Program-made: the position numbers and the translations under genes
Assembly: GCA_020161265.1 (NCBI GenBank)
Contig: JAIUOC010000012.1
Span: forward strand, 62,001 to 126,000
Length of the DNA stretch: 64,000 bases
Direction: 5' to 3'
From: Chloroflexota bacterium
Lineage (GTDB): Bacteria > Chloroflexota > Chloroflexia > Chloroflexales > Herpetosiphonaceae
Shown: in pieces, positions 23,733 to 57,385 of the stretch
How the letters are laid out: every line of letters starts with the position of its first letter
How positions within the stretch are numbered: the first letter of the stretch is position 1
The notes under the pieces: generated by a model
The model's database searches: none
Told to the model about the DNA's origin: nothing
The model's input: the letters and a program-made list of their open reading frames with translations, nothing else

Positions 23733-26700
23733 TTAGTTCTTGCTGACCATTGGTAAGTAGATCTTACGGGTTGGATCAACATTCTCAGTCACGTTGATCG
23801 TCACTGGAATTTGAACATTTGGTTGGGCTGTGTCGTTGGTTTGGATACACAGGTTGACTGTGTGGAGACCAGCGGCCAAGCCATTGGTGTTGAATTCAAG
23901 TGCCACATTGGCTGAGCCATCGGCTGCAATCGTGCCACTATTTGGCACTGAGCGAACCCATGGAGCAGCATCAGCAACACATGAAGCGCCACCACTGAGG
24001 TCAAGTGAAATATCATCAAGGAAGAAGTTGCTATTACCGCCAGCCTGAACAACTGATTCAACCGTCAGGGTATGGTTTGTTCCAGCGGCTAGCGCCGATG
24101 CGTTGATCGGTACTTCGACCAAGGTGTAGGTTGGGAAGCCAGTCCGTTCTGGGTTGGTTACTCGATAGACTTCATTGCCATCGATCAAAACGCGCATAAA
24201 GTCGTTTGGACGATCGGCAACTGCTGTAATAAACATCCAGAACGAGAGTGTTCCGCTGCTACCGGTTGGGGCAACAAAGCTTTGCTGCATTGTAGCAGTT
24301 TCGGTTGGCATCGTGTTGTCGATCCCACCGAACCATGCAAACCAGGTTCCGGTATGTGGAACATCCGAGGTTGAGTTTGGATCACAGGCAGTTGTACAGA
24401 ACACAACCCCAAAATTGGTTGAGCTTTGGCTCCAGAATGGGTTTGAGTTGCTATTGCCTGCGGCAACAGTTGCCTCAAAACTACCATCTTGGACCACTTC
24501 AGCGGCAGGTGCTGTTTGCTTGCTACCCGCAGAGCGTAAGTGGGCTGGGACTGGTTTGCGGGTAGCTACTTCGCCACTTGGGGCTTGGCGGCCACTGGCA
24601 GCCAGTTCAGCAATTGTCCAAGTCAAGGGTGCTGCACCATTGTTATCCAAGGTCAGGGTTTGAGTTGTGATGGTGTTGATTCCAACAGTCTCGCTGATTG
24701 GCGTGGTATCAACATCCAAACATGGTGCATTCAAGCGCAGTTGGCCATTTTGGGTAACCGCACCAGCTGCCGTAACCGTCACGTTGTAGGTTTGGGTAAC
24801 ATAGCCAGCCTTGGCAACCGTAATCGTATAGCTACCAGCAGCTAAGCTATAGCTGTATGATCCAGAGCCGCTGGTGGTCAAGACCGTTGCTGGAGTAGTG
24901 TTGATCGTCACAGTTGCGCCACTTAATGGAGCAGGTGAGACATCACATGCAGCTAAGCCTTGAATTGTCCCACTAATTGAACCGAAGTTCGGTGGAGCAG
25001 TAACCGTCAAGGTTACAGGGATAGTTACGCCTGGTAGTGGTGCATTGTGGGTCAAGACCAAGTTACCAGTGTAGACCCCAGCTTGGGTCAGGCCATTGGT
25101 CGAGAAGACCACATTGACCACTTGATTAGTCACTGGCGTACCGGGTAAGCCAGTAATCGTATTTGGCGTTTCAGTCAACCATGAAATAGCATCACAGCTA
25201 GCAGAAACACACAAGGCCATTTCGCTGCGCAGGCGAGCTTGGTTGAAGCTGAATTGAGCAGCTTGAGCCGTGCTTGCACCACGAACACCAACGGTTGCAC
25301 TCAAACCATTGTTGAATGATGGATTGCCATAATCGAGATCTTTGTATTGGTAAATCATGCCACCTTGTTCGTTGATCACAACTTGGAAGGTTGCATTACC
25401 AATATTGTCGTAGTGTGGGCGATTTTCCCATTGAACGATCAATGAGCGATTTGGCGCAGTACCGACAACTTTCCAGTAGGTTGCCCCTGATTCATCATCA
25501 ACATCATCCCAGAATGGTGAGATAACATTGTTGGTTGCGCCAGTCAGCAACGATTCGTTGGTTGCAGCGACATCACCAGTGGTTGCACCGACCAGGACAA
25601 CCCCATTGTTAGCAACCCGCAAGTTACGGCTGCTGGTGTTGAAGATGGTTACGGTAAATGGGCTGGTAATGTTGGCTTCTGCATCGTCAGTCAAGTTCAG
25701 GTTCGTACCATCGTTGGCTTCGATCCAGTTATATGGAATTTCCGAGATGGTATAGCCAGCTTGGCTGATGGCGCTGCGGCTTTGCTCGCTGATTGTTGCA
25801 TTGAGCGGAGCAGCACCCTTGCTGGTTACAACCAACGTTTGAGTTACAGGGGCAGCACCCAATTGGAGTGATGCACTCAATGAAGTTGGACCAGCGGTCA
25901 AACAAGCTTTGTTCAAGCGCAAGGTGAAGTTTTGGGTAACTTCAGCACCATCAGCAACCGTGACGCTTTGTGATTGACCAAGATGATCAACAGCACTAGC
26001 AGCAACGGTATAGGTACCACCTTGAGGCACGAAGAAGGCATATTCACCATTGGCATTGGTAGTAACTGTTGCAGTCATCCCGCTGGTATAGGTGATCAAG
26101 ATCTTAGCGCCAGCAGCTGGAGCAGGAATCGTATCACAAACACCTGATGAAACAACCGTACCACCAATCCGTGCTTGGGTAGCAGCGGGGTTGATGATCA
26201 TTGTCACTGGAATGTTGAATGTTTGGCTAATCACTGCTGAGTAACCAAGGTTCAGGCTGCCAGTGTAGGTACCAGGTTGGGTAATCACACCAGGATTCCA
26301 GCCGATTGCCACGTCGGTGCTTGCACCGCCAGCAATCACTCCAGTCGCAGGGGCTTCCTGCAACCATGGAATACTATCGCCGCTACCAATAATTGCTTGC
26401 AGCACACGCTCAAGCACAGTGCGTTCGATCGCTTCACCACTGGCACTGGTGCCTAGGCTAATGAAGTCGGTTGCAAGGTAGACTGCTTTGTAACCATTAC
26501 GTTGGATGAAGCTACCGCCAACTGCATTATTGACATAGCGGAAGATCACCGTCGATGAACTACCTGGGGTATAGAAGTCAGGGAATGAGTCTGCTGAAGC
26601 AGCATTCACACCAGCCATGAAATCGAAGCCAGTCAAGGCCCGATTCGCAGCACCTGGATCATCACCACCATAGGTTGAGTCAAGCATGGTTCGGTAGAAC

Positions 26701-29700
26701 GTACCTGAGTTGGTGAAGAAACCAAGGTCGTTATCAGCAATAAACAGCTTACCACCTGCGTTGAGGTATGCGGTAAGTTTGGTTTCGCTGGCATTATTGG
26801 CGGTTGCGTTAGTTGTGCCAAGGAAGATTACTGCATCAAAAGTTTGCAAGTTGGCCAAGCTACGGGCTTCGAATGCAACGTTATCGATTGATTCAAAGGT
26901 ATAGCCAAGCGCGGTCAAAGCCGTCGTTGCAGCAGTGGCCGAGGTTGCCGAGTTGCGTTGAACCACCAACACGTTGCCACCAGCGCGGTTGACCGCTGGA
27001 GTAAAGCCAGTCGCACCATTTTCGCGAATGGTGTAGGTGAATGGCTGAGTACCGTTGTTGGTTAATTCTAAACCAACAGTATCGGTGAATGGAGCATCAC
27101 CAAAGGTAAAGGTACGGGTCAAGCTGGCTGGGGTATAACCAAAGACTGGAGTAATTTCCAGATCTTGGGTTGTTGTAACCCCATTGCTAATCGTCAAGCT
27201 CGCGCTATCAGCAGCAAAACCAATCTTCGAAGCGGTCAGGGTATGGCTGCCTGGCTCCAAGCGAATGGCAAAGCTACCGTCAGCTTTGGTCTTGACGTAT
27301 TGGTTGCTGATGGCGACCGTTGCATCGCCAACTGGTGCGCCGTTCGCGCTGTTGGTCACAATCCCTGCGACCGCGCCAGCAGCCAAGGTGAAGTCTTGGG
27401 TCGCCGTGCCAGCATCAACCACCGTTACTGATTGTGATTGCGTGACATATTTTGGCGCACTGACCGTTACCGTGGTTGAACCAACATTGGCCACCGGAAT
27501 GGTGTATTGGCCAGCGGCATTGGTTGTGGTGCTATAGCCAGTGACCGACACATTTGCCCCAACAACTGGGTTGCTTGGGCTAAAGGCATCACGCACCGTC
27601 CCTGTAATTGAGCCGTAGCTCAAGACAAAGTTTTGGGTCGTGGTGACATTTTCAGTAATTGATACGCTTGGGACGACTTGGAATGCACCTTGCAAGCTAG
27701 CGGTTACAGCATAGGTACCAACTGGTACGATCATGCTGTAGTTACCACTGGCGTTGGTCAAAGCACTTGAGCCGCCGCTGGTGCGAACCATTGCGCCAAC
27801 AACTGGGTTGCTGTTGCTTTGGGTTACTTGGCCAGTCAAGGTACCGGTTGGGCCAACTGAGCCGTTGTAAACATACAAGGCAAAGTCTTGGTCGGTGGTG
27901 TCAGCATTGCCTGGAATGGCATCGCCAGCAATGTTGCGGGCAATGACTTTGACTTGGATTGCACCGCTTGCGCCTGCTGGCAAGTAAACACCTTCGATGT
28001 TGTTCTTGTTATCAGCAGTGCCGCCAGTGGTTGAAAGTGCGCCGTTGAAGACGTTACCTTTGTAGGTTTGGCCACCAACTGTCACTTCGAGATCAAGGTC
28101 GTTGACATAGCTGTTACCAGTAGTGCTACCAACTGCGTCAGTCCATGCCAAGGTAATTCGCATTGGTTTGGCTGAATCGGCAACTTGGCCCACTTGGGTA
28201 AATTCTTCACCGGTTGCGCCGAAGGTGCGGCTTTGGTCTACCACAATCCGTGGGGTGCTATCCAAGGCCGGAGCCAAGTTCATATCGCCCCAACCTTGAT
28301 TGTTTGATGGCAAGGTGCCACCCGTACCGCTGCCGTTCATGTAGCGGGTTGAAGCCAACATATAGGCTTTCAACATTGCTGGGCTTGGAGCAACCCCGCC
28401 ACCAAAGCTGGTGCGATATTTGGTGTAGAGCAATGAGGCTGCCCCTGCCACCGCTGGGGTTGAGTGGCTTGTACCGCTCGACCACGTGTAGAGTGTTTGG
28501 CCCGTTGGATAGTAGGCACTACCAGCGATTGCACAAACACTGTCGCCACTGAAGTCGGCTTGTTGTGAAGCTGGACCCATCACGTGCGTTCCAGGAGCCA
28601 TAATGTCGGGTTTTACCCGTGCATCATCGGTTGGACCACGGCTTGAGAACGTAGCAATGTCATCAGCGTTATCGGCATTTGGCTCATTACAACCATCCGA
28701 TACGCCTTCGTCGCGCACGTTTTCGGTTGCGCCTACGGTGATAACGTTCTTGGCAGTACCAGGTGAGCCAACCGTGTTCGTACCTGAACCAGCGTTACCA
28801 GCGGCAACGATGTGCGCCATTTCTTGGTTGCCAGCAGTGGTGCTGCTTGCATCACGAGTTCCTTGGTCGTAGGCTTGTGATGAAGCGGTATACGCGCCAC
28901 CACTGTTTGAACCCCAACTGTTGGATGAGATAGCAGCGCCATGGGTATAAGCCATAGCAATGATCCCAATGTAGTTGCTACCGCCACCACAATTGGTCAA
29001 ATCAAAAGTACCACCATTGTTGAAAATCTTGGTGCTAGCCATCCGCCCGAATGGCGAAATACCTAGGCCAACGCGATAGCCGCCAGCAATCCCTGAGCTA
29101 GCGCCGTCAACGTGGGGCGAGCCAGTCAGGTTATTGTAGCTACCAACAATCCCTACATTGAGGTGACCGTGACCATCTTGGTTTGACCCAGAAGCATCAG
29201 CTGTACAGTTACCAACCGCGGCAATCCGCGAAGTACCAGGCCGAACCCCATTGACATAGAAGTCGGGGTGAATGGGCGAGGTCGTGCCGTTATCCAAACC
29301 ATCATCGATAACATCGACAATTGGATATTGGTTGGGGTCGGTTGGCACGCCTTGGCTTTGCAACCAGCTTAAGTAGCCTGGGCCGTTCGGCACCACTTTG
29401 CCACCAGCAGTGGTTACGTTACCAGCAATAATTTGGCCTTGGCGCTCATCCATTTTTTGAGGAGCTTCCCACGCTTCAATGTTGTAGACATTGGCGCGGC
29501 GAGCAATTGGAGCCAAGGCGGCTTCGCTGACTTGCACCGAAATCGTGGTGAAGTTGAGCACTTGCCATGGGGTTGCGTAAACTTGGGCGCTGGCATCAAG
29601 CACTTCGCGCACATCACGCTCAACCGTCGCACTGTTATAGAACTGAATCGTAATATCGACCAGCCCCTTCGCATCGGGGTTGCTGGCTTTTTGGCGGAAC

Positions 29701-30281
29701 TCAGGAGCTAGGCGATATTCGGGGTGATAGGCACCAGCCCATTGAATCGCCCCATTGCTCTTGCTGAGTGCATCAAGTTTGGCCACGGTTTGGCCATTTG
29801 CCCAAACGAGGTAAGCATTGTTGGGCATGTAAATCACACGTTCCGCGCCAGCTTTGGTCAGTTCATCCAACCAAGCATCCTTGAGTGGCCCCGCAAATTG
29901 CACCAACCACAATTGTTGGTCGGCAGTTGGGCTTTGGCTCAGGCTTGGTTGTACTGTGGGAACGTTCTTTAAAGGATTGAAGCTGATTCCGCGTAAGCCA
30001 ATCGTATCCAGATCGGCGGCTTGTGCGCCAGCTAATTGGTTGAGGCTATTGGCGTTGCTCGTGGCAACTTGCCAGACTGAAAAAGAGCCATAATCGGCAA
30101 TCAACGTACCATTCGTGCGAACAAATTTGTTGGCTGGGCTGTTTGGTTCAACGAGGAACTTGGTCGTCGCAGTCGGAGCACGCATTACTTCGGCACGGGC
30201 TGGTTGCGCCGCACCTTGAAGTCCCAATGAGAGCGTCATTGCAATGAGGGCTGCTTGCCGAATGAAGGGGAATTTGGCCAT
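23733..30281 (-). CDS. Giant secreted subtilisin-like protease (S8) with repeat domains, paralogue 1
   Basis: 2,182 residues from the ATG at 30281 (GGAGG upstream). A signal peptide (about 1-32, ending QPARA) precedes a pro-region, then the S8 domain with Asp near 325 (PIVDVIDDGLDNG), His near 370 (GHGHLNVGI) and Ser near 603 (SSGTSHSTPAVAG). Three carboxypeptidase-regulatory-like beta domains follow (near 815-1050), a Rossmann-like segment near 1120-1230 (FDAVIFLG, GGKLFIADND), two more regulatory-like domains, a MAM-like module near 1930-2090 and a final beta domain. The end, IYLPMVSKN, is shared with other secreted proteins here. It should degrade protein outside the cell, fitting predatory or scavenging nutrition. 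The paralogue lies immediately upstream. Confidence 0.9.
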   Translation of the reverse strand: MAKFPFIRQAALIAMTLSLGLQGAAQPARAEVMRAPTATTKFLVEPNSPANKFVRTNGTLIADYGSFSVWQVATSNANSLNQLAGAQAADLDTIGLRGISFNPLKNVPTVQPSLSQSPTADQQLWLVQFAGPLKDAWLDELTKAGAERVIYMPNNAYLVWANGQTVAKLDALSKSNGAIQWAGAYHPEYRLAPEFRQKASNPDAKGLVDITIQFYNSATVERDVREVLDASAQVYATPWQVLNFTTISVQVSEAALAPIARRANVYNIEAWEAPQKMDERQGQIIAGNVTTAGGKVVPNGPGYLSWLQSQGVPTDPNQYPIVDVIDDGLDNGTTSPIHPDFYVNGVRPGTSRIAAVGNCTADASGSNQDGHGHLNVGIVGSYNNLTGSPHVDGASSGIAGGYRVGLGISPFGRMASTKIFNNGGTFDLTNCGGGSNYIGIIAMAYTHGAAISSNSWGSNSGGAYTASSQAYDQGTRDASSTTAGNQEMAHIVAAGNAGSGTNTVGSPGTAKNVITVGATENVRDEGVSDGCNEPNADNADDIATFSSRGPTDDARVKPDIMAPGTHVMGPASQQADFSGDSVCAIAGSAYYPTGQTLYTWSSGTSHSTPAVAGAASLLYTKYRTSFGGGVAPSPAMLKAYMLASTRYMNGSGTGGTLPSNNQGWGDMNLAPALDSTPRIVVDQSRTFGATGEEFTQVGQVADSAKPMRITLAWTDAVGSTTGNSYVNDLDLEVTVGGQTYKGNVFNGALSTTGGTADNKNNIEGVYLPAGASGAIQVKVIARNIAGDAIPGNADTTDQDFALYVYNGSVGPTGTLTGQVTQSNSNPVVGAMVRTSGGSSALTNASGNYSMIVPVGTYAVTASLQGAFQVVPSVSITENVTTTQNFVLSYGSITGTVRDAFSPSNPVVGANVSVTGYSTTTNAAGQYTIPVANVGSTTVTVSAPKYVTQSQSVTVVDAGTATQDFTLAAGAVAGIVTNSANGAPVGDATVAISNQYVKTKADGSFAIRLEPGSHTLTASKIGFAADSASLTISNGVTTTQDLEITPVFGYTPASLTRTFTFGDAPFTDTVGLELTNNGTQPFTYTIRENGATGFTPAVNRAGGNVLVVQRNSATSATAATTALTALGYTFESIDNVAFEARSLANLQTFDAVIFLGTTNATANNASETKLTAYLNAGGKLFIADNDLGFFTNSGTFYRTMLDSTYGGDDPGAANRALTGFDFMAGVNAASADSFPDFYTPGSSSTVIFRYVNNAVGGSFIQRNGYKAVYLATDFISLGTSASGEAIERTVLERVLQAIIGSGDSIPWLQEAPATGVIAGGASTDVAIGWNPGVITQPGTYTGSLNLGYSAVISQTFNIPVTMIINPAATQARIGGTVVSSGVCDTIPAPAAGAKILITYTSGMTATVTTNANGEYAFFVPQGGTYTVAASAVDHLGQSQSVTVADGAEVTQNFTLRLNKACLTAGPTSLSASLQLGAAPVTQTLVVTSKGAAPLNATISEQSRSAISQAGYTISEIPYNWIEANDGTNLNLTDDAEANITSPFTVTIFNTSSRNLRVANNGVVLVGATTGDVAATNESLLTGATNNVISPFWDDVDDESGATYWKVVGTAPNRSLIVQWENRPHYDNIGNATFQVVINEQGGMIYQYKDLDYGNPSFNNGLSATVGVRGASTAQAAQFSFNQARLRSEMALCVSASCDAISWLTETPNTITGLPGTPVTNQVVNVVFSTNGLTQAGVYTGNLVLTHNAPLPGVTIPVTLTVTAPPNFGSISGTIQGLAACDVSPAPLSGATVTINTTPATVLTTSGSGSYSYSLAAGSYTITVAKAGYVTQTYNVTVTAAGAVTQNGQLRLNAPCLDVDTTPISETVGINTITTQTLTLDNNGAAPLTWTIAELAASGRQAPSGEVATRKPVPAHLRSAGSKQTAPAAEVVQDGSFEATVAAGNSNSNPFWSQSSTNFGVVFCTTACDPNSTSDVPHTGTWFAWFGGIDNTMPTETATMQQSFVAPTGSSGTLSFWMFITAVADRPNDFMRVLIDGNEVYRVTNPERTGFPTYTLVEVPINASALAAGTNHTLTVESVVQAGGNSNFFLDDISLDLSGGASCVADAAPWVRSVPNSGTIAADGSANVALEFNTNGLAAGLHTVNLCIQTNDTAQPNVQIPVTINVTENVDPTRKIYLPMVSKN

Positions 30282-30532
30282 GCCATCCTCCACACACAAG
30301 TGTGTAATACCAGTTAATTCCAAGAGGTACAATCGTGAGCATGTGGCTAAAATATCAAAAAAATAATATTAAACTGTATCCCTCCTTTCAATAAAAGGGG
30401 ATTGTCGCGGGTTGGTGAGAGTAATAGCTTAAAAAAGCCCGTTCACTGGCTATGGGCGTATTCTAACGCTTCAGTTTGAGGCGCTACGGGGCAACAATCT
30501 CTTATATCCATTATCCCGTTGGGGATAGGACT
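30282..30532 (-). promoter_or_regulatory. Long 5' leader of subtilase 1 with internal terminator-like hairpin
   Basis: Between the candidate promoter (30533-30561) and the ATG lie about 245 transcribed bases with no ORF of note. On the minus strand GCCC-13 bases-GGGC followed by TTTTTT (30431-30454) resembles an attenuator. ACACAC-TT-GTGTGT (about 30291-30304) ends directly at the GGAGG site and could hide it. No known riboswitch was recognised. Confidence 0.4.
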
Positions 30533-30561
30533 ATTGTACTAGCAAGCATTTTTTTATGCAA
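30533..30561 (-). promoter_or_regulatory. Candidate promoter of subtilase 1
   Basis: On the minus strand TTGCAT (30556-30561) and TACAAT (30533-30538), 17 bases apart. Confidence 0.5.
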
Positions 30562-30610
30562 ATTTAACTTAATTGCCCATTCTAATCAGCAAAATCTAAT
30601 ATTCGCTTAA

Positions 30611-30650
30611 TAAAAACCCCCTGTGATCTGCAATTCACAGGGGGTTTTGC
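30611..30650 (-). terminator. Intrinsic terminator after subtilase 2
   Basis: A perfect 14-pair stem (AAAACCCCCTGTGA with its complement, 30613-30626 and 30635-30648) around an 8-base loop; on the minus strand it is followed by TTTTTATTAAG. Confidence 0.9.
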
Positions 30651-30679
30651 TTGATGAGTTTTAAAATCAGGCTATGTAC

Positions 30680-33600
30680 TTAGTTGCGCATAATGATAGG
30701 TAGATACAGCGGATAGTTCGGGATCGCCGCTGGCTCAACCGTCAAACTAACTGGAATCCGCACATTTTGGCGATTGGGGTTGTTGGTGATCAAGCATAAA
30801 CTGGCAGTATGCGTGCCAACTGCCAAGCCCGTTGGATCAAGCGCAACATCAATTGTTTGCTGGCTATCAGCAGCAATATTGCCACTGTTCGGCACAACGT
30901 GCAGCCAATCCACTGCATCACCAGCACAGCTTTGGACTAAATCAAGGCTCAGATCATCAATAAAGAAGTTGGTGTTGCCGCCTTGCACAATTTGGGCTTC
31001 AAAGCGAATGCTATGCAGCTCGCGCCCACCAAGCACTTGCTCATTAATCGGCACAGTTACTAGGGTATAGCTGCTGTAATTGGCCCGATCGGCATTGGTC
31101 ACTCGAAATACTTCATTGTTGTTGATCAGGACTCGCATGTAATCATCAGGTCGATCCATCGGCGCAGTAACCGATAACCAGAAACTCAAGGTACCTGCGC
31201 TAAAGCTGGTTTGGCTGAAGTCTTGGCTGAAATAGCTGGTTTCAGTGCCAAAGTTTGACCCAATCCCTCCCATCCAAATAAACCAATCACCAGTATGCGG
31301 CATAACATCATCACACTCCACAGTGCAGAGCAAGCTGGCAAAGTTGCGCGAATCTTGGCTCCAATAGGGGTTGGTCGCCACATTATCGCTAATCGTAGTG
31401 GCCTCGAAGCCGCCATCAAGCAAACGTTCGCTAGCTGGAACCAGTTGCGGTTGAGCTTCTGTTTGGCTGGTCGTTACTCGTTGGGCATTGGCTGCCAAGG
31501 CTTTTTGTTGTGGCAAGCGTTCTTCAATTTGCCAATCGAGCACACCTGCGCCGAGATTGCTCAAGCTAAAGCTGGCGGTGATCGGCGTGTTCAGTTCGGT
31601 GGTGGCGGTAATCGCTGGCGTGCTGCTGGTATCCAAACATGGCGCTTTCAAGCGTAGCAGCGAATCTTGCTGATAGGTCTGGCCTGCCTCAACCGTTAAT
31701 GGATAGCTGACACTGGTAAATGCCCCCGGGTAGCCTTCAACCAAGACGTTGTAGCTGCCTGCCGGAATTGGGCGGCTGTAGTTGCCAATGCCATTGGTAT
31801 ATAAAACTGTTGGCGGCTCAGTGTCAATCGTAATTTTGACGTTGGCCAAAGGCATTGGGTTGACATCGCAAACCAAAGTTGTTTCAACCAAACCATTCAG
31901 CACGCCATAACCTTCGGGCAAGGTTACATTGACGGTTACAGGAACAACTACTGGCGGCTGTGGCGTGGTGTGGTTCAGCACCAAATTGGTGGTGTAAACG
32001 CCAACTGTATCAAAGTTGCTGGTATCAATCGCGAGATCAACCATTCGGAAACTTGATGGTGTACCAGTCAAATTGCTAAGTTTATTCGGGCTAACGCTCA
32101 GCCAATTCAAACTATCGCAAGTTTGTGAGATACACAAGGCCATGCGATCACGTAGGACTGGCCGATCAACGCTATATTGGGCAATCTCGTTGCGTGTGCC
32201 ACGCACCCCAATCGTAGCACTGGCCCCAAAATCTAAGAATGGTTCGTTGAAATCCACATCCTTGTATTGGAACAAAATATCGCCTTGTTCTGAGAGCACC
32301 GCTTGGAAAGTGGTGTTATCCCAGTTGTTGTAGTGTGGGCGATGTTCCCACTGCACTACCACCGCGCGATTGGGCGCTTCGCCGACGACTTTCCAATACA
32401 CGCCGCCTGTTTCATCATCCAAATCGTCCCAGTAAGGTGCAATCACATAGTTATGGATGGCATTCTCTAGGCTGGGGTTGAAGATTTCGATCAAGCCAGT
32501 CAAATTGTTGAGGATCATTACGCCGTTATTCGAGATGCGCAAATCGGTGGTGCTCACGCCATACAAATTAATCGGAAATGGCGTGACGATATTGACCAAA
32601 TCGTAAGCACCCATATTCAAATTTGTGCCGTCGCTGGCTTCGATCCAGTTGTAATCAACTTCGGTCAGTGTTAGATCGCCGCTGTTGACGGTTTTGGCAC
32701 GAGTTTCGCTAATTGCCACATCGAGCGCTTGTGCTCCGGTGCTGATCACAAACAGCTGCTCGGTTTTGCTTTCGCCAAACACGATGCTAGTATTGATCGC
32801 ATTTGGCCCAACAATCAGACACCCTTTATCCAGCCGCAATTGCATATTATTGACACTTGGCTCGCCATCGCCAACAGTAATACTTTGGCTGCTGGCAACG
32901 TGGTCGGTTGCGCTAAATTCAAGGCTATACTCGCCGCCTGCTGGAACAAACACCACATACTCGCCTGCGCTATTGGTGCGCACGCTGGTAACCAAGCCTT
33001 GTTGATCATTGATCGTCACCAAGGCATTGGCTAATGGCGCTGGGGTATTGCTACAAACGCCCGAGCCAGTCACAACGCCGCTTAGTCGGGCTTGGCTGGT
33101 GTTGGGCGTGATCGTAATGCTGACTGGAATTTCGGCAGTTTGGGTGTAGACCGCAGTTTGGGCCAAAACCACCGTGCCAGTGTAGGTTCCAGGTTGAGTT
33201 AATCGATCAGGGAACCAGCTAACTGCCACCGAACTGTTTTGTCCTGCCGCCACCTCGCCGCGCAATGGCGCAAGCTCCACCCAATTAATTTGATCGGTGG
33301 TTCCTAGCAATTGGGCAAGACTGACTTCAACAATATCGCGTTCGATGCGCTCACCAAAGGCGTTTGTGCCGAAATTGTGAAAATCAACCGCTAAATAAAT
33401 TGCTTTGTAGCCGTTGCGCTCAATGTACGAGCCACCAACCGAGCCATCACTGTAGCGGAAGATTGCGCGTGATGAGCTGCCAGGCGTGAAATAATCAGGG
33501 AAGAAATCAACCACCATAGGATTGATTCCGGCCATGAAATCCAGCCCAATCAAGTTGTAATTGGCAGTTTCAGGGTCATCGCCGCCAAAACTCGCATCAA

Positions 33601-36600
33601 GATATTGCTGATAAAAACTGCCGCTGTTGGTGAAGTAGCCCAAATCGTTATCAGCAATCAACAGCCGCCCGCCAGCATCGAGATATTCGGCCAATTTGGC
33701 TTCGATCGGATTATTGGCGGCATTATCAGTCATTCCAAGATAAATTAGCGCGTCGTAGGCCTGAATATCGGCCAAACTCATTGTGGCAAATTCGCCAAAT
33801 TCAATCTGATCGTATGCATAGCCCAGCTGGCTCAGCGGAATGGTGGCTGCATTGGCATCATCGCTACCAGTGCGCAGCACCACCAAAATCCGTTGTTGGT
33901 TGCGGGCAGGCGTAAAGCCAGCATCGCTCAATTCGCGCAGGCTATAACTAATTGGCTGAGTCGTATTGTTGGTTAATTCCAAGTTCAGGCTATCGCTAAT
34001 CGGAGCCGCCCCAAACTCAAAGCTTCGGCTCAGGCCGCTCGGTGTATAGCTGAGCAATGGAATCAAACTCAGGTTTAATGTGCTGGTCAGACCATTACTG
34101 AGGCTCAAATTCTGCGTTTCGGCGATTAGTCCAACTTTGCTGGCTCCAACGCTATAGCTGCCCAAGGGCAAGCGCAAGCTGTAGTAACCCGCCGCATTGG
34201 TTTTGACCGTGTAACTGCCAAGCGTGACCACAGCATCCTTGACTCCTAGGCCGCTGCTGGCATCGCTAATTATCCCTTCAACCGCACCCGCCGCCAAATT
34301 GAAATTGCCTATGGTGGTGGTATTGGCAACTACACTCAGATTTTGCTGCTGCGGCGTGTAACGATCGGCCTGAACATTCAGCGCCACCGTGCCCGGCGCG
34401 GCCACCGGAATTTGATAGGCACCAGTGCTATCGGTAAAGGTGCTGAAGCCAGCGGTCGAAACCAAGGCTCCAACAATTGGCAAACTTGGGGTAAAGCTAT
34501 CGCGCACCACCCCGCTAATGCTGCCATATACCAAGGTAAAGTTTTGGCTAATTTGGGCATTTTGGCCAACAGTAATGGTTGGCACACTTTGAAATACCCC
34601 ATTTATGCTAGCCGTCAGGGCATAGGTGCCAACCGGCAATACCAAACGATAGTTGCCATCGGCATCGCTCACGGTACTCAAATTAGTGTTGGTGGCAATT
34701 CGCACGTTGGCAACAGGTGCATTGCTGGCGTTGCTCACCCGCCCCGTAACTGTGCCAATCGCGCCCTCGCTAGCATTGTAGACATACAGGGCAAAATCTT
34801 GGTCGGTGCTATCAGCATTACCTGGAATAGCATCGCCAGCAATATTGCGGGCAATTACCCGCACCTGAATCGAGCCACTTGCCCCAGCTGGCAGGTAAAC
34901 CGATTCAACATTGTTTTTGGCATCGGCCACGCCGCCAGTTGTTGAGAGCGCTCCATTAAACACATTGCCTTTATAAACTTGGCCGCCAACCGTCACTTCG
35001 AGATCAAGGTCATTGACGAAGGCATCGCCCGTAGTACCGCCCGCCGCATCAGTCCATGTGAGGGCGACCCGCAAAGCTTTGTTGCTATCGGCAATTTGGC
35101 CTACTTGGCTGAAACTCTCGCCGCTAGCCCCAAACACATGGCTTTGATCAACCACAATTCTGGGAGTGCTATCGAGCGCGGTTTTCAGGTAGACATCGCC
35201 CCAACCTTGCTGATTGGTTGGCAAGTTGCCGCCAGTATTCACACCATCTAAATAACGGCTCGAAGCCAACAAATAGGCCTTGAGCATGGCCGGGCTTGGA
35301 GTTGCCCCATTGCCAAAGCTTGTACGATATTTGGTATACAGCAACGAAGCTGCGCCTGCCACCGCCGGAGTTGAGTGGCTAGTACCGCTTGACCATGTGT
35401 AAAGGGTTTGATTATCGGGATAATATGGATTAGTTAGACCACCACAAACGCCATCGCCCCAAAAGCCCGCTTCTTGGGGGGCTGGGCCAATTACGTGGGT
35501 GCCAGGAGCCATAATATCGGGCTTGATTCGGCTATCATCGGTTGGGCCTTTGCTCGAAAAAATCGCCAAATCATCAGCATTATCGGCCTGTGAAATCTCA
35601 CAGCCATTGCCATCCAAAACGCCTTCATCGCGCACATTTTCGGTTGCGCCGACTGAAATCACGTTTTTGGCGGTGCTCGGCGCGCTAACCGTATTTGCCC
35701 CAAATTCACCCACATTGCCTGCGGCAAAAATATGCAACATCGCTTGGTTACCCGCATCGTCGCCGCTCGCGTCGCGGGTGAGTTGGTCGTAAAGCTGCGA
35801 ATAAATGTTATACGCACCCATTGAGGCTGGTTGGCCCCAGCTATTCGAGGTAATTGCCGCTTGATGCTCATAACCAGCAGTCACAATATCGGCGTAGCTA
35901 TCGCCACCATCACAATTGCTAATGCTGAATGCGCCACTATTGCGAAAGATTTTGGTGCTGGCCATACGGGTATAGGGCGCAATCCCAAGCCCAATATTAT
36001 AGCCACCAGCAATCCCAGAGCTAGCTTCATCGATATAGGGAAACCCTGTGAGATTGTTGTAGCCGCCGATAATTCCGGCGTTGATTTGGCCGTGACCCGC
36101 CAAACTATTGCCGCGCGGGTCAAGAGTACAGTTGGATGTGGCGGTGATGCGCGAAGTTCCAGGTCGCACGCCATTTAGATAAAAATCAGGATGCAATGGA
36201 TTGATCGTGCCATCATCGAAGCCATCATCAACCACATCAACAATTGGATACTCGGCAGGGTTGTTGGGCAAGCCTTGGCTTTGCAACCAGCTTAAATAGC
36301 CAGGCCCACTTGGCACAGTTTTGCCATTCAGCGTCGTCACATTGCCTGCGATAATCTGGCCTTGACGTTCATCAAACAGCTCTGGCTCGCTCCAAGGCTC
36401 AATATTGTAGATATTCGCTCGTTGCGCCAACGCTGCCAATTCAGTTTCAGGCAGTTGGACCGAAAGTGTCGTGAAATTGAGCACCTGCCATGGCCGTGCA
36501 TGCAGCTTGCTACTCGCCGCAATGACTGCATCAACCGAGGCTTGCACATCGCCAGCATTGTAGATTTGCACGCTGACATCAACCAATTCAGTTCGTTTGG

Positions 36601-37195: not shown

Positions 37196-37300
37196 GCTAT
37201 TTCCTCCACACAGCGAGATCACGGCAACAAGTGCCAACCACAGCCAATTCAATCGACCAGACCAGCGTGATTGAACCGACTGCCCCCTTGACTTGAGCAC

Positions 37301-40480: not shown

Positions 40481-40539
40481 CCCAAGAAGCGAGATAGCTT
40501 GGCAATTCGGAAACGTTGCCAACAATTCAAGGAGCCTGC

Positions 40540-41464: not shown

Positions 41465-42280
41465 ATGTCCGATTTAGCAGCTTTTTACACCAAACACTTT
41501 GATGAAATTATCGACTCTACGATCGAATTAATTCAAGCCAATGTCGTTGAATATAGCAAAATGGCGCGTGACGAACTTAAAAAACGTGCTGTTGCCGCCA
41601 TCGATGCATTAATCCGCGATTTACGTGAGCCAGATGTTCATGCGTATCAACAGCATATGCGAGCGATCAGCTATGAGCGCTTCCGTCAAAATATTCCATT
41701 AAATAGCGTTCAACAAGTCTTACGTAGTATTAACCAAGCGACCGCCAATACATTTCGCAAATATTATGCTGAAGATCCCATCCTTTTGCTCGAAATGGTT
41801 GAACGCTTACATGAGCTAACCGAAGAAGGCATGATGGGCATGTTCAATGGCTACGAAGATGCTCAGATCGAAATTATCTCCAACCAAGAATCTGCCTTAG
41901 CCGAAGTTTCATCACCAATCGTGCCGGTTTATGGTGGAATTCTGGTGTTACCACTAATTGGCTCGGTTGATTCGCGGCGGGCTGGCCAAATCATGGAAGC
42001 CTTACTCGAAGCGATCAACACCTATAGCGCCGATGTCGTGATTTTGGATATTACGGGTGTTCCGGTGATCGACACTGGCGTTGCTAATTATCTCCTGCAA
42101 GCTGCCCGTGCTGCGCGTTTGCTCGGCTCGACCGTGGTGCTGGTGGGGATTGGCGCTGAAATTGCCCAAACGATTGTTCAATTGGGCATCGATTTGACTG
42201 GGATTGTTACCCGCGCCAACTTGCAAGCTGGAGTTGAATATGCGCTCGAATTGCAAGGCCTAGCTATTCGCCCACGCTAA
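41465..42280 (+). CDS. RsbR-type STAS-domain protein, paralogue 2
   Basis: 271 residues, the same length as paralogue 1, with AGGAGG 10 bases before the ATG. The N-terminal helical domain (LAAFYTKHFDEIIDSTIEL onward) has diverged, while the STAS domain matches almost residue for residue from ALAEVSSPIVPVY to LQGLAIRPR. Ser170 and Thr204 are conserved. Different sensor domains on a common core are how mixed stressosomes are built, so it probably co-assembles with paralogue 1. It converges on the membrane STAS gene. Confidence 0.85.
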   Translation: MSDLAAFYTKHFDEIIDSTIELIQANVVEYSKMARDELKKRAVAAIDALIRDLREPDVHAYQQHMRAISYERFRQNIPLNSVQQVLRSINQATANTFRKYYAEDPILLLEMVERLHELTEEGMMGMFNGYEDAQIEIISNQESALAEVSSPIVPVYGGILVLPLIGSVDSRRAGQIMEALLEAINTYSADVVILDITGVPVIDTGVANYLLQAARAARLLGSTVVLVGIGAEIAQTIVQLGIDLTGIVTRANLQAGVEYALELQGLAIRPR

Positions 42281-44522: not shown

Positions 44523-47500
44523 TTAACATGGTCCAGAGAGGTAGTCTATATAGTAGAAGGGATAAATTACTCGTTCAGGAAAACGATGATAACTTCTGCT
44601 ATGAGAAATAGGTATAATAAAATTAATCTTTATATAACTCTTATTATTTACTTTTTTTGTAAAACAGGCCACAGTTGCTTCTGTATGAGCAGTTGTATCA
44701 ATATCTGCCAAGTATAATGTGGAAATAGATAAATTTGTTCTTAGCGTATACGGGGGTGGTATTTCCGTTATTGGAAATGCTCCAATTTTACTGCTTGATG
44801 TACGTGACCCAAAATCGCCAAGAGGTAGTGCGGCAGCAATTGCCAAAGGCTTCCAGCCAAATGATGAGCCTAGTCTTAATCCAATACTAATCTCTTCCTG
44901 ATCGTAGAATGGTAAGACCCGTGCCTCCATTGCAGCATATTCTACTTCTTGGAATACATCTCCTTGATCAGATGTATCGCTACCAAGGATATAGTCATTT
45001 CCTAAGGAAACATCATCAGAACCTAACCCTAAACCACTAATTTCAGAATCAGCACCATCACAAGCAGTAGCTGGCCAAGTATCACGCATATGGGGTCGAA
45101 CTTCACCATTTGTTCGTTGATGAGTAATTTTGATTGTGGCAAAAAATATACCTTGCCCGCCACCAATATTATTAGATCCTCGAATATATGTCTTAAAATC
45201 AATCTGTTGAATAATAGTGCATGTTTCATTTTCATCTACCCAAGAATACCAATGAAATTTTTCTTGGTTGGGAGAATTATAATGTGTACTAGCATCCTCT
45301 TCTTCAAATGATTGACTAATAGGATTAAATATCTTTGTATGCCAGTAGTCATCAGTATAAGCTGGGCCATATTTTGCTTTCACCTCTAGAATATCGCTTA
45401 TAATATTATTATTAATTGTAAAGGTAGTATATTGATACTTATAATGTTCTTGTAGGGTAATAACCATATTAGGATTATTTGTAAATCGATCTGTCATAAC
45501 TGCGGGAACAGACTTTGAACGTGCTGCCACATTTATAACTTTGAAGTTATGGAGTTTATCTTGTAAAACTAACACTTTATCCTTTATATCACCAATAACT
45601 GAGTAGTATATATCCCCTGAAAATTCGAATGGAAAATTGATATTTTCGTAGCTAATAAAACCAGACATATCTAAATATTCATCATAGACAACGAGCGAGG
45701 TAATCGTCATCATCGCAGTTGTAGTAGGACCACCTAATTCGGTAAGTGGTACATTCAAATAGGCTGTACCATTAGCAGCGATCGGATTCGTAAGAGTGGC
45801 GCGAGGGCTGAGCAAAGCGACCTTATCAATCCGAACAATGGGGTCAGAGACCCAATCAGGCGCAATAAAGCGAATTTTAATCGTTTGATTTTGGAATTGC
45901 TGAACCGGCAATTGCGCGATCTTCCAGCCATCATTAAGTGAATAGCGCAATTGATGCTGATCAATCCTGGTTATCGTTGTAAAATTGGCTCCAGAGAGCA
46001 CTTCAACCGCTAAATGATGCTGTGCATTCCCATGATCTTTACTGCCAATTTGATACTCAAAGCGTAAGAATTGGCTATCGCTAGCAAGATCAAAGCTCGA
46101 ACTGGTAACATGCTGACCACTCCGCGAAAGCTCAATAAAAGCATTATCAGGAGCTGCTTGACTTCCCTGATTACTAGAAGTTGGGCCGACAATCAACTCA
46201 AGATTGTCAATCCACGAGGTGGAATAACCATGACCTTGATGCTTAAATTGAAGCTTAATTAGCTGATTTTGGAATTGAGCTAGATTGAGATTAGCCTCAT
46301 GCCAGCCATTATCAGGATCATTGCCACTGCCATGAACCCAGCCAATTGGCGTAATAATTTCGAAGTTATTGCCACTTAACACATTTACTTCGATTACTGA
46401 CTGCCACCATGCCTCGGGATGTTGAGTTTTATAACTAAATTGCAGTGCTTGGGTATCTGATAAGACAGTCCAAGCATCACTCGTAAATGTCGCATTATTC
46501 CCAGCAAATTGAATGCTCTGCCCATTAGAGCTACCTGCTACTAGGCTAATGGGTGCATGTTCACTGCTTGACCAGCCCTCGACTACTTGAGCGATTTGAA
46601 AACTATCAAGTCGCAAATAAGCCATTGGATGCGTTTCTAATTGAAAGCGTAGTTTGATAACTTGGCCTTGGAATCGTTGTAGATCGATGGCTAGACTTTG
46701 CCAGCCCTGGTTGGTTGCGCTAAACAAATAATGGTAGGGCAAAGCTGTAGAAATATGAAAAGATTCACCACTTAGGATACTAATCGCAACTCGTTGACGG
46801 GCTGCATCATCAGTTATAAAGCCTGATTGATAAGCAAAACGAACTTGTTGAGCAGTTAGCGGTACAGTAAACTCAAGCGAGGTTAATTGGGTGGTATGCC
46901 CATGTAGATACAAATGGTTACCTTGGGCTGGATTAGTATCGACCTTAATTAATTGGTGATTCGATGTTTCCCAATTTGGTACATCTTGGATCAGCTTTAA
47001 GTGCTTAATTTGACTGGTCGGGTTGCCCCATGTTGGATTGATAAATTGCAATTTAATCGTCTTGCCACGATAACCAACAAGATCAATTCGGCCTTGCAGC
47101 CAACCCGCTTGGCTAGAACTAAAAAATTCATGGCCGCGAGGAAACTCGCGAATTTCGAAATTTTCACCACTGAGAATCGCAATTGCCAGCAATTGGTTAA
47201 GATTAGGATTATCTAAATCGCCAACTAGATATTCAAAGTGAATACTGGTGGCAGCGGTTGGCACGGCAAATTCAGCACTCGTTGCGGTTGCATTGAGTCC
47301 CGCCAAGCCAATCGGTGCTTGTTCTAGTTCAGCCAGCAACAGATTGGATTGCTCAAAATCAGCATTTTCAAGGACATCAAAGGCAACTAAATCTTGCTCA
47401 AAATCAGCATTTAATAGGGTAATGTCGTTAGTCGATGGAACATGGGCACTATTGGTACGCACAAAACTGGCATTGGAAACATCCCAGCCTGGTACAGCCC

Positions 47501-48932
47501 AGTTTAGAGTGAAGCTATCAAGTGAGGTAACTTGTGGCTCGTGGGGCCACCAATCGTTGATGATTTTGATTTTGATAGTTTGTCCACGAAAGGCTTGAAG
47601 ATCGAGCATTGCTTCGCGCCAACCATCAGTCAATCTTCCACCAACAGTCCATTGATCAATCCGGGTTGCTGTGGCAAAGTTTGCCCCACTCAACACCTCA
47701 ACAAATACTGGCGCATGACCATCGTTCAACCAGCGACCTGTCCGATAACGAAATACGAGGCTCTGGGTTTGGTTGGTAATATCGATCGGGGCTGAGGTCA
47801 GGCTGGCATTGGCTCCCGTGATCACTGCATGAGCACCGATGAGATCGTCATGGTGAATCGCGAATTCGCCAATATTCGATAGCTCCCAATCAGGAATCTC
47901 TTGGGTCAAATGCAGATTTCGCACCTGTGCCGACGGTTGATCAACCCACCACCAGTCGTTAATAAAGCGCAGTTTAATTGTTTGACCACGAAAGGCTTGA
48001 ATATTTAATAAACCAGTTTGCCAGCCCAGCCGATATTGGCTCTTGATGCGGTTATGACTGATATTAGTAACGATGTTAAAATCAACGCCGCTCAAAACTT
48101 CGACATGTAGTGGCGTGATACTATCGGCAGTTTTGCGCCCCACCAAATATTCAAATATCAACATTTGGGTAGATTCAGGTACAGCTACTGATTCCGTTGT
48201 AAACGATTGGCTAGCATGTTCAAGGCTGAAGGTTTCAGGGCTAAGCGTGGCTAGAATTTCGCGATCTCGCGCAAATTCACAATTTAATGGGTAGTTTGGG
48301 CGTGGCAAGGCTTGATTGGTATGGGTAACCCTAGCATTTTGGGGTTGATTTGGCATTGGCTCCAAAGCTGGTAAATCAAGGCTGGCGGCAGGCTCAGGGC
48401 ATGGATCAGTTTCTAAATCAAGACTAGAATGTTCAGCAGCCGACACTAATGGTTCGCTGACTGTGGCAGTAATTCGATAGCTACCAGTACGAGTACCAGC
48501 ATGATCACGTACCCAAACGGCATAACGGCCTGTGGTTTCAGCAATTGCCGAGCCAATCAATGGATTGCCATCAAAACCACTATTATCGTCGTTGGCAATC
48601 AAGTTATCTTCGGGATCAAACAGTGATAGCTCTCCATTTAACAACTCTTCGTCGGCAGAGCGCTGCATTTCAACGGTAATTTCTTGCTGCGCCTCTGCAT
48701 CAATATAAAAGATGTCTTGATCAGTTTTTGGTGAGATTGTGGCAAGATTAGAGGGTTGACCGCTGATTAACACTTGATAATCATCAGCATCAAGCAAAAT
48801 ATCGTTTAATGTTGCTTGATCGGCGGTGGATTGAAGCTTGGGCGCGGTTGATTGCACTGGTTTTGAAGGGACGATACCAATCATCATACTACTTACAATC
48901 AACATACTCATAACACGGCGTATTGGAATCAT
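44523..48932 (-). CDS. Secreted modular protein: PPC domain, six beta repeats, unusual AT-rich C-terminus
   Basis: 1,469 residues; GGAAGG lies 5 bases before the ATG. A signal peptide (about 1-28) is followed by a bacterial pre-peptidase C-terminal (PPC) domain (about 45-165, TDQDIFYIDAEAQQEITVEM, SYRITATV). Six repeats of about 135 residues follow, each with the motif Q-x-F-R/Q-G/N-Q-x-I-K-[LI]-x-F near 319, 452, 620, 754, 889 and 1014, probably carbohydrate- or surface-binding beta domains. The last 400 residues are encoded by strikingly AT-rich DNA (44.5-45.8 kb) and match nothing I know. It lacks the YLP tail of other secreted proteins here. A chimera with a foreign C-terminal module is likely. 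Confidence 0.75.
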   Translation of the reverse strand: MIPIRRVMSMLIVSSMMIGIVPSKPVQSTAPKLQSTADQATLNDILLDADDYQVLISGQPSNLATISPKTDQDIFYIDAEAQQEITVEMQRSADEELLNGELSLFDPEDNLIANDDNSGFDGNPLIGSAIAETTGRYAVWVRDHAGTRTGSYRITATVSEPLVSAAEHSSLDLETDPCPEPAASLDLPALEPMPNQPQNARVTHTNQALPRPNYPLNCEFARDREILATLSPETFSLEHASQSFTTESVAVPESTQMLIFEYLVGRKTADSITPLHVEVLSGVDFNIVTNISHNRIKSQYRLGWQTGLLNIQAFRGQTIKLRFINDWWWVDQPSAQVRNLHLTQEIPDWELSNIGEFAIHHDDLIGAHAVITGANASLTSAPIDITNQTQSLVFRYRTGRWLNDGHAPVFVEVLSGANFATATRIDQWTVGGRLTDGWREAMLDLQAFRGQTIKIKIINDWWPHEPQVTSLDSFTLNWAVPGWDVSNASFVRTNSAHVPSTNDITLLNADFEQDLVAFDVLENADFEQSNLLLAELEQAPIGLAGLNATATSAEFAVPTAATSIHFEYLVGDLDNPNLNQLLAIAILSGENFEIREFPRGHEFFSSSQAGWLQGRIDLVGYRGKTIKLQFINPTWGNPTSQIKHLKLIQDVPNWETSNHQLIKVDTNPAQGNHLYLHGHTTQLTSLEFTVPLTAQQVRFAYQSGFITDDAARQRVAISILSGESFHISTALPYHYLFSATNQGWQSLAIDLQRFQGQVIKLRFQLETHPMAYLRLDSFQIAQVVEGWSSSEHAPISLVAGSSNGQSIQFAGNNATFTSDAWTVLSDTQALQFSYKTQHPEAWWQSVIEVNVLSGNNFEIITPIGWVHGSGNDPDNGWHEANLNLAQFQNQLIKLQFKHQGHGYSTSWIDNLELIVGPTSSNQGSQAAPDNAFIELSRSGQHVTSSSFDLASDSQFLRFEYQIGSKDHGNAQHHLAVEVLSGANFTTITRIDQHQLRYSLNDGWKIAQLPVQQFQNQTIKIRFIAPDWVSDPIVRIDKVALLSPRATLTNPIAANGTAYLNVPLTELGGPTTTAMMTITSLVVYDEYLDMSGFISYENINFPFEFSGDIYYSVIGDIKDKVLVLQDKLHNFKVINVAARSKSVPAVMTDRFTNNPNMVITLQEHYKYQYTTFTINNNIISDILEVKAKYGPAYTDDYWHTKIFNPISQSFEEEDASTHYNSPNQEKFHWYSWVDENETCTIIQQIDFKTYIRGSNNIGGGQGIFFATIKITHQRTNGEVRPHMRDTWPATACDGADSEISGLGLGSDDVSLGNDYILGSDTSDQGDVFQEVEYAAMEARVLPFYDQEEISIGLRLGSSFGWKPLAIAAALPLGDFGSRTSSSKIGAFPITEIPPPYTLRTNLSISTLYLADIDTTAHTEATVACFTKKVNNKSYIKINFIIPISHSRSYHRFPERVIYPFYYIDYLSGPC

Positions 48933-54531: not shown

Positions 54532-54539
54532 CCATGGGG

Positions 54540-55320: not shown

Positions 55321-55323
55321 AAT

Positions 55324-55352: not shown

Positions 55353-55388
55353 AATGCGGCTGTCGTGACTGAGAGCCAATGAACTTGA

Positions 55389-55465
<77 letters not shown>

Positions 55466-55482
55466 GTTAACAACATCAATAA

Positions 55483-55568
55483 GCCGAAGTGGCGGAATGG
55501 CAGACGCGATGGTCTCAAAAACCATTGAGGGCAACCTCATGTGGGTTCGACTCCCACCTTCGGCACCA
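55483..55568 (+). tRNA. tRNA-Leu (CAA)
   Basis: 86 bases including encoded CCA and a long variable arm, as expected for leucine. Acceptor GCCGAAG/CTTCGGC, anticodon arm ATGGT-CTCAAAA-ACCAT with anticodon CAA, T arm TGGGTTCGACTCCCA. A perfect terminator follows 6 bases later. Confidence 0.96.
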
Positions 55569-55574
55569 AATTGA

Positions 55575-55609
55575 TCAACTGTGTATAATGTACACAGTTG
55601 ATTTTTTTT
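55575..55609 (+). terminator. Terminator of the tRNA operon
   Basis: TCAACTGTGTA (55575-55585) and TACACAGTTGA (55591-55601) form a perfect 11-pair stem around TAATG, then eight T. The same bases contain TATAAT (55584-55589), so it could double as the -10 box of the next gene. Confidence 0.9.
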
Positions 55610-55627
55610 GTTCACGAGGTTGTTATT

Positions 55628-57385
55628 TTGCGCAAATTTGGTTTATTGCTTGTGATCCTCTTCGGGCTTGTTACCCCTGCTCCGGCTGCTCCCGATGCGC
55701 CGTCAGCCCAGCCCAGCACAATCACGCCTTGGGGCATCAATGGCTACCTCACCAAAAACGAGCGGGTGGCTGGTGGCGATAATGTGGCACAACTGGCCCA
55801 AACCATGGCCTCGGCCAACGCCGATTGGTCGCTCGAAGAGTTGCCATGGGCCGAAATCGAGCCAAATAATGGCACATTTCGCACCACCTACGATAGCCGC
55901 ATCAAAACCGTCGCCGATGCCAACCTTGGGATTATTGGCATGCTGCTGACGACCCCAGCGTGGGCACGTGAATCTTCGTGTGCTGGCAATAACAACTACT
56001 GGTGTCCACCGAGCGATCCGGCCCAATACGCCGAGTTTGCCGCTTGGATGGTCGAGCGCTACGATGGCGATGGAGTCAGTGATGCTCCAGGCTCGCCGCG
56101 CATCGCCGCTTGGCAAATTTGGAACGAGCCAAACTTTGTTGCTACTTGGAGTTCAATCAACAATAACGAGGCCTTGCGCCGCCGTCGTTATGGCGAAATC
56201 TTGGTCGCCGCCTATAACGCTATCAAACAAGCTGATCCGACGGCGATTGTGGTGGCTGGCGGGGTGTATGTGTTCGATGGCTTTAGCGATGGCTTCGATT
56301 TTCTCAATGGCACCAATGGCGTGTTTCGCCAAATACCTGAGGCCAAAACGAGCTTTGATGTGCTAGGAATTCACCCCTATATGCCAACGATTGCCCCCGA
56401 TGCGATCGGGACGTTTTCGAGCGTCACGCTCGAAGGGCGTTTGCTCAACACCCGTAATTGGCTGACCAACGATATTGGCCGCCCTAGCGCCCCAATTTGG
56501 ATCACTGAGATTGGTTGGTGTACTAGCCCTGGCTCGACCAGTTGCCCCGTGGTGAGCGCCGAAAATCAAGCCCGCTACTTAATTCGCAGCTTTGTGATTG
56601 CCCAACAATTGGGCGTGCAGCATATTAATTGGTTGCAACTTGAAGATGCTTTCAATGGTGGACACCCATTTAGTGGCTCGGAAATGGTCGGCAATCTATC
56701 GAATAATAGCTACACTCCTAAATCGGCCTATACCGCTTTTCAAACCATGGCTGGTTTATTGAATGAAGCCACCCCGCTGGGCATTCGGGCTGGCGTGCAT
56801 ACCCACAATTATGTTGCCAATAGCAATAACACTGGTGGTGTGTATGCCTATCGTTATAGCCGTGGCAACACCGAAATCGATGCATTGTGGACTCCTGGGG
56901 CTAACACCACAATTCAGTTTCCGCTGACTGCTGGCAAGCAATGGATTTTCCGCACTCGCAATAATCAATCGTTTACCCCAACGATTAATGGTACAACCGC
57001 TAGTATTGTGCTGACCAATGACCCGATTTTTATTGTGCAGAAAATTCCGGTCAGTTTGAATGTACAAAATTCGCTGAGTTTATTGGCCGAAGTTGGTAGC
57101 GCTGAGGCACGAGCCGATATTCCGTTGAGCAATGGTGGCAGCGAAAATGCCCTCGTTTGGAATATTAGCAATGCTTCGGCAGGTTTAACCGTTACGCCGA
57201 GCAGTGGTAGCGTGGTTGGCACCGCCAATTTGACGATCAAGGCACAAGTTGGTAGCCTAAATGCCGGAACCTATAATTATCAGTTTACGGTTAATGGCGA
57301 TGGTGTTGCTTCACGCACCGTTCAAGTAAGCCTGCGGGTGGTTGATCAGCTTCAGCCCATCTATTTGCCGCTGACTAGAAAATAG
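55628..57385 (+). CDS. Secreted glycoside hydrolase, clan GH-A (GH39/GH5-like) with C-terminal beta domain
   Basis: 585 residues if the TTG at 55628 is the start (GAGG 9 bases before); a TTG at 55598 lies inside the terminator stem and is unlikely. A signal peptide ends near VTPAPAA. The TIM barrel shows the acid/base glutamate in WNEPN (near 166) and the nucleophile glutamate in ITEIGW (near 293), which are the clan GH-A marks, with [22 protein letters not shown] before them. An Ig-like domain (about 480-575) follows, and the protein ends IYLPLTRK, the tail shared with the subtilases. It probably cuts plant or microbial polysaccharide outside the cell; the exact substrate is not evident. Confidence 0.85.

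What the first reader, a model, noticed from the sequence alone, without database searches (positions are those of the whole stretch)
23733..57385. Shared C-terminal YLP tail on three unrelated secreted enzymes: a possible undescribed sorting signal
Seen directly: subtilase 1 ends IYLPMVSKN, subtilase 2 ends LYLPIIMRN and the glycosidase ends IYLPLTRK. Each tail directly follows an Ig-like or other beta domain. The three share no other C-terminal sequence, and the two catalytic classes are different, so common descent of the whole protein cannot explain it for the glycosidase. The 1,469-residue secreted protein with a foreign-looking C-terminus lacks the tail. From memory, other Chloroflexota secreted proteins end this way. 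I infer that [IV/L]YLP-x(3,4)-K/R acts as a recognition tag for export, anchoring or processing on this envelope.
Basis: partly seen in the sequence, partly recalled or inferred. Interest (0 to 1): 0.75.

Follow-up and report, generated by a model that had tools for sequence, protein, structure and literature searches.

The report
Chloroflexota surface-protein tag: the YLP box
The short YLP ending on these secreted enzymes is a real peptide tag carried by dozens of unrelated exported proteins in many Chloroflexota; NCBI already lists it as a putative sorting motif, and the new point here is that the same tag also sits at the front of some mature proteins, which fits a docking tag rather than a strictly C-terminal sorting signal.

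Summary
The three tails are present as described, and the pattern is far above chance. In 1.26 Mb of this Herpetosiphon genome, 19 of 945 ORFs end in the motif against about 0.9 in shuffles. A GTDB-wide scan for the strict form found it at the end of real ORFs only in Chloroflexota. Tag-bearing proteins are very diverse, nearly all carry signal peptides, and many put the tag directly behind a Pro/Thr linker.

Three corrections. The two subtilases are 53% identical tandem paralogs, so the window holds two independent families, not three. The motif is not undescribed: NCBIfam 20.0 already has NF050076 and NF053834, "YLP-box putative sorting motif". It is not strictly C-terminal: at least 11 exported proteins in the loci read carry the same peptide at or near the mature N-terminus, one pair behind a twin-arginine-like signal.

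Known C-terminal sorting machineries do not fit. There is no transmembrane segment, no T9SS tail, exosortase in 1 of 12 tag-rich genomes, sortase absent from one tag-rich genome and present in tag-free ones, and no SLH domains.

Best explanation: a peptide tag recognised outside the membrane that docks secreted proteins on the envelope, probably non-covalently. The receptor is unknown and no experiment exists.

The parts
23736..23762 (-). YLP tag IYLPMVSKN at the C-terminus of subtilase 1
   Evidence: NCBIfam NF053834 13.7 bits (cut-off 10), NF050076 13.9 bits (cut-off 15)
23733..30332 (-). subtilase 1: signal peptide, Peptidase_S8, CarboxypepD_reg repeats, Ig-like C-terminal region, YLP tag
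   Evidence: SP-like heuristic
30683..30709 (-). YLP tag LYLPIIMRN at the C-terminus of subtilase 2
   Evidence: no NCBIfam YLP-box hit reported
30680..37300 (-). subtilase 2, tandem paralog of subtilase 1 (53% identical)
57359..57382 (+). YLP tag IYLPLTRK at the C-terminus of the glycosidase
   Evidence: found by the broad C-terminal motif and conserved in orthologs; not among the listed profile hits
55598..57385 (+). secreted glycosidase; nearest solved folds are PslG and GH39; BACON_2 domain at residues 498-577
57089..57328 (+). BACON_2 domain of the glycosidase; last predicted strand is residues 573-581, tail residues 588-595 lie outside it
44523..48932 (-). 1,469-aa secreted protein without a YLP tag (native C-terminus)

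Best explanation
The tail is the YLP box, a linear peptide tag of consensus [VI]-Y-L-P-[LIM]-[VI]-[VIML]-[RK] (looser in Herpetosiphon) that marks exported proteins of Chloroflexota for the cell envelope. Shown: it is a protein-level motif on very diverse signal-peptide proteins, mostly at the C-terminus but also at or near the mature N-terminus or in linkers. Inferred: it is read after export, outside the cytoplasmic membrane, by a phylum-specific surface receptor or scaffold that binds the hydrophobic peptide as an extended strand, most simply without a covalent link. It would thus hold enzymes and adhesins on the filament surface where other bacteria use LPXTG, PEP-CTERM, T9SS or SLH anchors. 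The receptor is not identified.
For: Enrichment over shuffle and truncation nulls. Strict motif in 2,087 ORFs: 126 C-terminal, 4 elsewhere; the 'rel' and 'gc' sets were selected for the motif, so only the own-genome 6 to 1 is unbiased. Phylum restriction: 105 sites in a scan of 84,980 species genomes, 87 ending ORFs of 70 aa or more; the 11 sites in records titled as other phyla all lie in tiny ORFs, and one of those (L159) looks like a misbinned Roseiflexus contig. Named genomes at E<=1: Ca. Viridilinea mediisalina 52, Ca. Chloroploca mongolica 39, Roseiflexus 629F.7 26; eight genomes of other phyla 1-4 each. Diverse carriers: 94 Pfam families in 46 tag proteins, none in more than 4 members, and NCBIfam 'choice-of-anchor' D, J and T domains among them. 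Peptide-level selection: Y, L, P and R use their synonymous codons freely. Host sample: tails on 16 of 124 'secreted' proteins, 0 of 49 lipoproteins, 0 of 10 with SP plus C-terminal TM. Linkers directly before the tag. N-terminal tags after signal peptides, two copies in L360, a Tat-like signal in L281/L282. No SLH in tag-rich genomes.
Against: No receptor, no conserved neighbour gene and no localisation data. Signal-peptide, lipoprotein and Tat calls are heuristics of mine. Many secreted proteins of the same genome have no tag, so it is not general. Whether the bond is covalent cannot be judged from sequence. 'Choice-of-anchor' is a database name, not a test.
Confidence: 0.5

Rival explanations
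1. C-terminal sorting signal of the sortase/exosortase/rhombosortase type: a membrane enzyme cuts at YLP and attaches the protein covalently.
For: Same kinds of carrier domains, Pro/Thr linkers, one tag per protein, dozens per genome. Sortases occur in most tag-rich genomes.
Against: No transmembrane helix or basic cluster follows; the protein ends at the tag. N-terminal tags lack the geometry. Tag-rich G168 has no sortase hit while tag-free f5 genomes of the same class do; exosortase passes its cut-off in 1 of 12. LPxT plus TM proteins exist beside the tags.
Confidence: 0.12
2. Export signal: the tag is read by a secretion or chaperone system that carries proteins across the outer envelope layers, as the T9SS C-terminal domain is.
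For: Some Chloroflexales have an outer-membrane-like layer by cryo-ET (PMC7332563). Short basic-ended hydrophobic strands would suit a chaperone (inference).
Against: T9SS tail domain in 0 of 12 tag-rich genomes. Roseiflexus is tag-rich (26), yet the cryo-ET study saw no outer membrane in R. castenholzii.
Confidence: 0.2
3. Structural cap: the tail is the last strand or clasp of its own protein and has no partner.
For: In the window the tails follow beta-rich C-terminal regions.
Against: AlphaFold places the glycosidase tail outside the sheet at pLDDT below 50; elsewhere tags follow Pro/Thr linkers or begin the mature chain. The model of the subtilase C-terminus is too poor to judge.
Confidence: 0.08
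4. Protease-related tag: a degradation or processing site outside the cell.
For: Hydrophobic C-termini are common ligands of tail-specific proteases (general knowledge); L269 has the motif between propeptide and trypsin domain.
Against: The R is usually the last residue, so nothing follows to be released; the tag is conserved on presumably functional enzymes and occurs at both ends.
Confidence: 0.08

Closest known systems
NCBIfam NF050076 sort_motif_YLP and NF053834 ultrashort_CTERM ('YLP-box putative sorting motif-containing protein')
   Same: Same 10-11 residue motif; tagged proteins of relatives and subtilase 1 of the window match, at both C- and N-terminal places.
   Different: Subtilase 2 and glycosidase tails (Herpetosiphon variants) are not reported by the models. 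The curators' notes could not be read, so whether N-terminal places are known to them is open.
LPXTG/sortase
   Same: LP core, linker before the tag, many unrelated surface proteins.
   Different: No TM helix or basic cluster; can be N-terminal; present in a genome with no sortase hit.
PEP-CTERM/exosortase, GlyGly-CTERM/rhombosortase, MYXO-CTERM/myxosortase
   Same: Many-substrate tag on signal-peptide proteins, dozens per genome (PMC1569441, PMC11980579).
   Different: Those signals are tripartite with a TM helix; this one is 8-9 residues.
T9SS C-terminal domain
   Same: Soluble secreted proteins, C-terminal, often basic end (last point from memory).
   Different: The CTD is a 75-position domain; absent from 12 tag-rich genomes.

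Membership tests
NCBIfam YLP-box (NF050076 / NF053834) | score over the curated cut-off (15 / 10 bits) | tested here: inconclusive
   subtilase 1 passes NF053834 (13.7) and misses NF050076 (13.9); subtilase 2 and glycosidase tails have no hit. Relatives L263 (16.6) and L346 (17.3) pass NF050076.
NCBIfam YLP-box (NF050076 / NF053834) | motif at the end of an exported Chloroflexota protein | tested here: met
LPXTG/sortase substrate | LPXTG-like motif followed by TM helix and basic cluster | tested here: not met
   The protein ends 4-5 residues after P in all three window proteins.
LPXTG/sortase substrate | sortase present wherever the signal is abundant | tested here: not met
   G168 has 9 tag hits at E<=1 and no sortase hit.
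PEP-CTERM/exosortase | exosortase (PF09721) in the genome | tested here: not met
   over the cut-off in 1 of 12 tag-rich genomes, none in the host.
MYXO-CTERM | invariant Cys motif, TM helix, Arg-rich end | tested here: not met
   no Cys, no TM helix.
T9SS C-terminal domain | Por_Secre_tail domain (PF18962) | tested here: not met
   0 of 12.
SLH-anchored protein | SLH domains (PF00395) | tested here: not met
   3 of 201 genomes, none tag-rich.
non-covalent surface-docking tag | binding to a surface receptor | not testable with these tools
   needs biochemistry

The most novel reading that the evidence does not exclude
The YLP box is a position-independent docking peptide: the same 8-residue tag works at the C-terminus, at the mature N-terminus or in a linker, and on Sec and perhaps Tat substrates. 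A phylum-specific extracellular scaffold binds it without a transpeptidase, which would be a surface-display system unlike the sortase, exosortase, T9SS and SLH kinds.
Probability: 0.4. Interest if true: 0.75.

Novelty: already known. Interest (0 to 1): 0.5.

Why it matters
How many Chloroflexota, which nearly all lack an SLH anchor and have a disputed envelope, keep enzymes on their surface is open. The YLP box marks a large set of their surface proteins in one search, gives a testable handle (an 8-residue peptide) for pulling out the receptor, and the N-terminal copies argue against the transpeptidase model that a C-terminal tag would suggest.

Tried and rejected
Conserved neighbour gene of tag genes: none found. 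Sortase, exosortase, T9SS and SLH as partners: rejected. Solved structure containing the tag: none by profile. Literature on the motif: none found in the held library. Nucleotide-level signal at the 3' end: rejected, synonymous codons vary. Foreign or frameshifted end of the 1,469-aa protein: rejected, orthologs align to its last residue. Subtilase C-terminal AlphaFold model: too poor (mean pLDDT 44.7).

Full report
Observation. The three tails are in the sequence exactly as reported. Two corrections: the subtilases at 23733-30332(-) and 30680-37300(-) are neighbouring paralogs, 53% identical over 2,206 columns, so the window contains two tagged families, not three. The 1,469-aa protein lacks the tail, but its end is native: in G034, G102, G043 and G110 the ortholog aligns to residue 1469. 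The window lies in a 6.04 Mb Herpetosiphon genome: G110, given as same genus, has the length of the H. aurantiacus DSM 785 chromosome, and that record carries the same hit.

Is it more than chance? I read 1.264 Mb of the host genome. Of 945 ORFs, 19 end in the broad motif, against 0.9 (max 5 in 300) for shuffled C-termini and 0.7 (max 4) for random truncation; 15 of them fall in the 124 proteins my heuristic calls secreted. With a slightly different motif, tails fall on 16 of 124 secreted proteins and on none of 49 lipoproteins, 518 cytosolic proteins or 10 proteins with signal peptide plus C-terminal helix. These classes are heuristic and noisy. A 12-position profile of the tag found 26 places in the whole genome at E<=10; 22 are precisely the C-termini of long ORFs.

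Distribution. A strict DNA pattern for [VIM]YLP[LIM][VIM][VIM]R-stop was scanned over one genome for each of 84,980 species. It gave 105 sites in 103 stretches; 87 end ORFs of at least 70 aa, in Chloroflexales, Anaerolineae groups and Ca. Aquidulcis (Limnocylindria). The sites in records of other phyla end ORFs of 2-19 aa; one of them, an 'Elioraea' contig (L159), carries the end of a Roseiflexus protein and is probably misbinned. In 201 genomes of the phylum the profile count is high in the host's order and in some others (G011 48, G166 27, G192 25), and zero in the f5 genomes of the same class and in G142 of the same order. Named genomes: Ca. Viridilinea mediisalina 52, Ca. Chloroploca mongolica 39, C. 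asiatica 30, Roseiflexus 629F.7 26, Thermoflexia J88 25, H. aurantiacus 13, Anaerolineales H5_CFX5 8, Thermanaerothrix 5; eight genomes of other phyla 1-4, those looked at lying in tiny frames.

Anatomy. In relatives the tag is [VI]YLP[LIM][VI][VIML]R with a sharp left edge (the pattern-selected rows inflate this). Codons for Y, L, P and R vary freely, so selection is on the peptide. Carriers are diverse: 185 tag proteins fall in 64 single-linkage clusters, 48 of them singletons (one large cluster of 90 is probably chained through common repeat domains). In 46 carriers 94 Pfam families were found, none in more than four. NCBIfam 'choice-of-anchor' D, J and T domains occur among them. In several proteins the tag directly follows a Pro/Thr linker. 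In the glycosidase the last predicted strand of the BACON domain is residues 573-581 and the tail lies beyond it with pLDDT under 50 from residue 591; orthologs that keep the BACON domain keep a looser tail (VYLPLMRR, LYVPIVGRNE, IHMPLIAR), those without the domain lack it.

The tag is not only C-terminal. Among profile hits in Chloroflexota read one by one, 62 are C-terminal, and 11 (13 by script, two of them chance on inspection: L257, L348) lie on the N-terminal side behind a signal peptide: L263 (expansin-like, AQ-NGAYTVYLPLVIRD), L276, L360 (two copies in a Pro/Thr linker), L367, L346 and L365 (CAP), L371, L362 (GHL10), L268, and L281/L282 behind a twin-arginine-like SRRSLL signal. L166:6365, L172 and L296 are further, weaker cases found by eye or by a looser search. 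A general loose test of such N-terminal places was weak (6 seen, 2.9 expected), so the case rests on the exact matches. In L296, a relative of the window glycosidase without BACON and tail, a looser TYLPTVFIPR follows the signal peptide.

Mechanism. A tag that may stand at either end, on very different folds, with no transmembrane segment, fits a peptide that docks outside the membrane. The Tat-like case would mean that reading happens after export, but the Tat call is by eye. Known partners fail: sortase is present in 138 of 201 genomes including tag-free ones and has no hit in tag-rich G168; exosortase 1 of 12; T9SS tail 0 of 12; SLH in 3 of 201, none tag-rich. No conserved neighbour was seen. 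The receptor therefore remains unknown, and non-covalent docking is inference.

Known or new. NCBIfam 20.0 holds NF050076 sort_motif_YLP and NF053834 ultrashort_CTERM, both named 'YLP-box putative sorting motif-containing protein'. I found this late, after building the case independently. Subtilase 1 passes NF053834; the other two window tails have no hit and are assigned by position, the broad motif and, for the glycosidase, orthologs. No paper found in the held library describes the motif.

Noticed in passing
window 23733-37300: Two subtilases of about 2,200 residues lie in tandem as 53% identical paralogs; both carry an internal VYLPAGASG that is part of a domain and not a tag.
   Followed up: partly
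L281:2212-3033 and L282:2215-3033: The ORF two genes upstream of the N-terminally tagged protein ends in a tag variant in both loci, TTYTPLVVR / SVYTPLIVR.
   Followed up: no
host C1:1114196 and L098:6181: LPATS / LPNTS followed by a hydrophobic helix: sortase-type substrates seem to exist beside the YLP tags; the host has 4 sortase hits.
   Followed up: no
L159: Contig CALFVI010000026.1 titled 'Elioraea' carries the end of a Roseiflexus protein; probable misbinning.
   Followed up: partly
G112: One Chloroflexota genome has 33 SLH matches and only one weak YLP hit, the reverse of its tag-rich relatives.
   Followed up: no
G142: A genome of the same family as tag-rich G166 with no tag hit; a natural contrast for finding the receptor.
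   Followed up: no
window 40516-41355 and 41465-42280: Two neighbouring ORFs with nearly identical C-terminal ends, probably a duplication.
   Followed up: no
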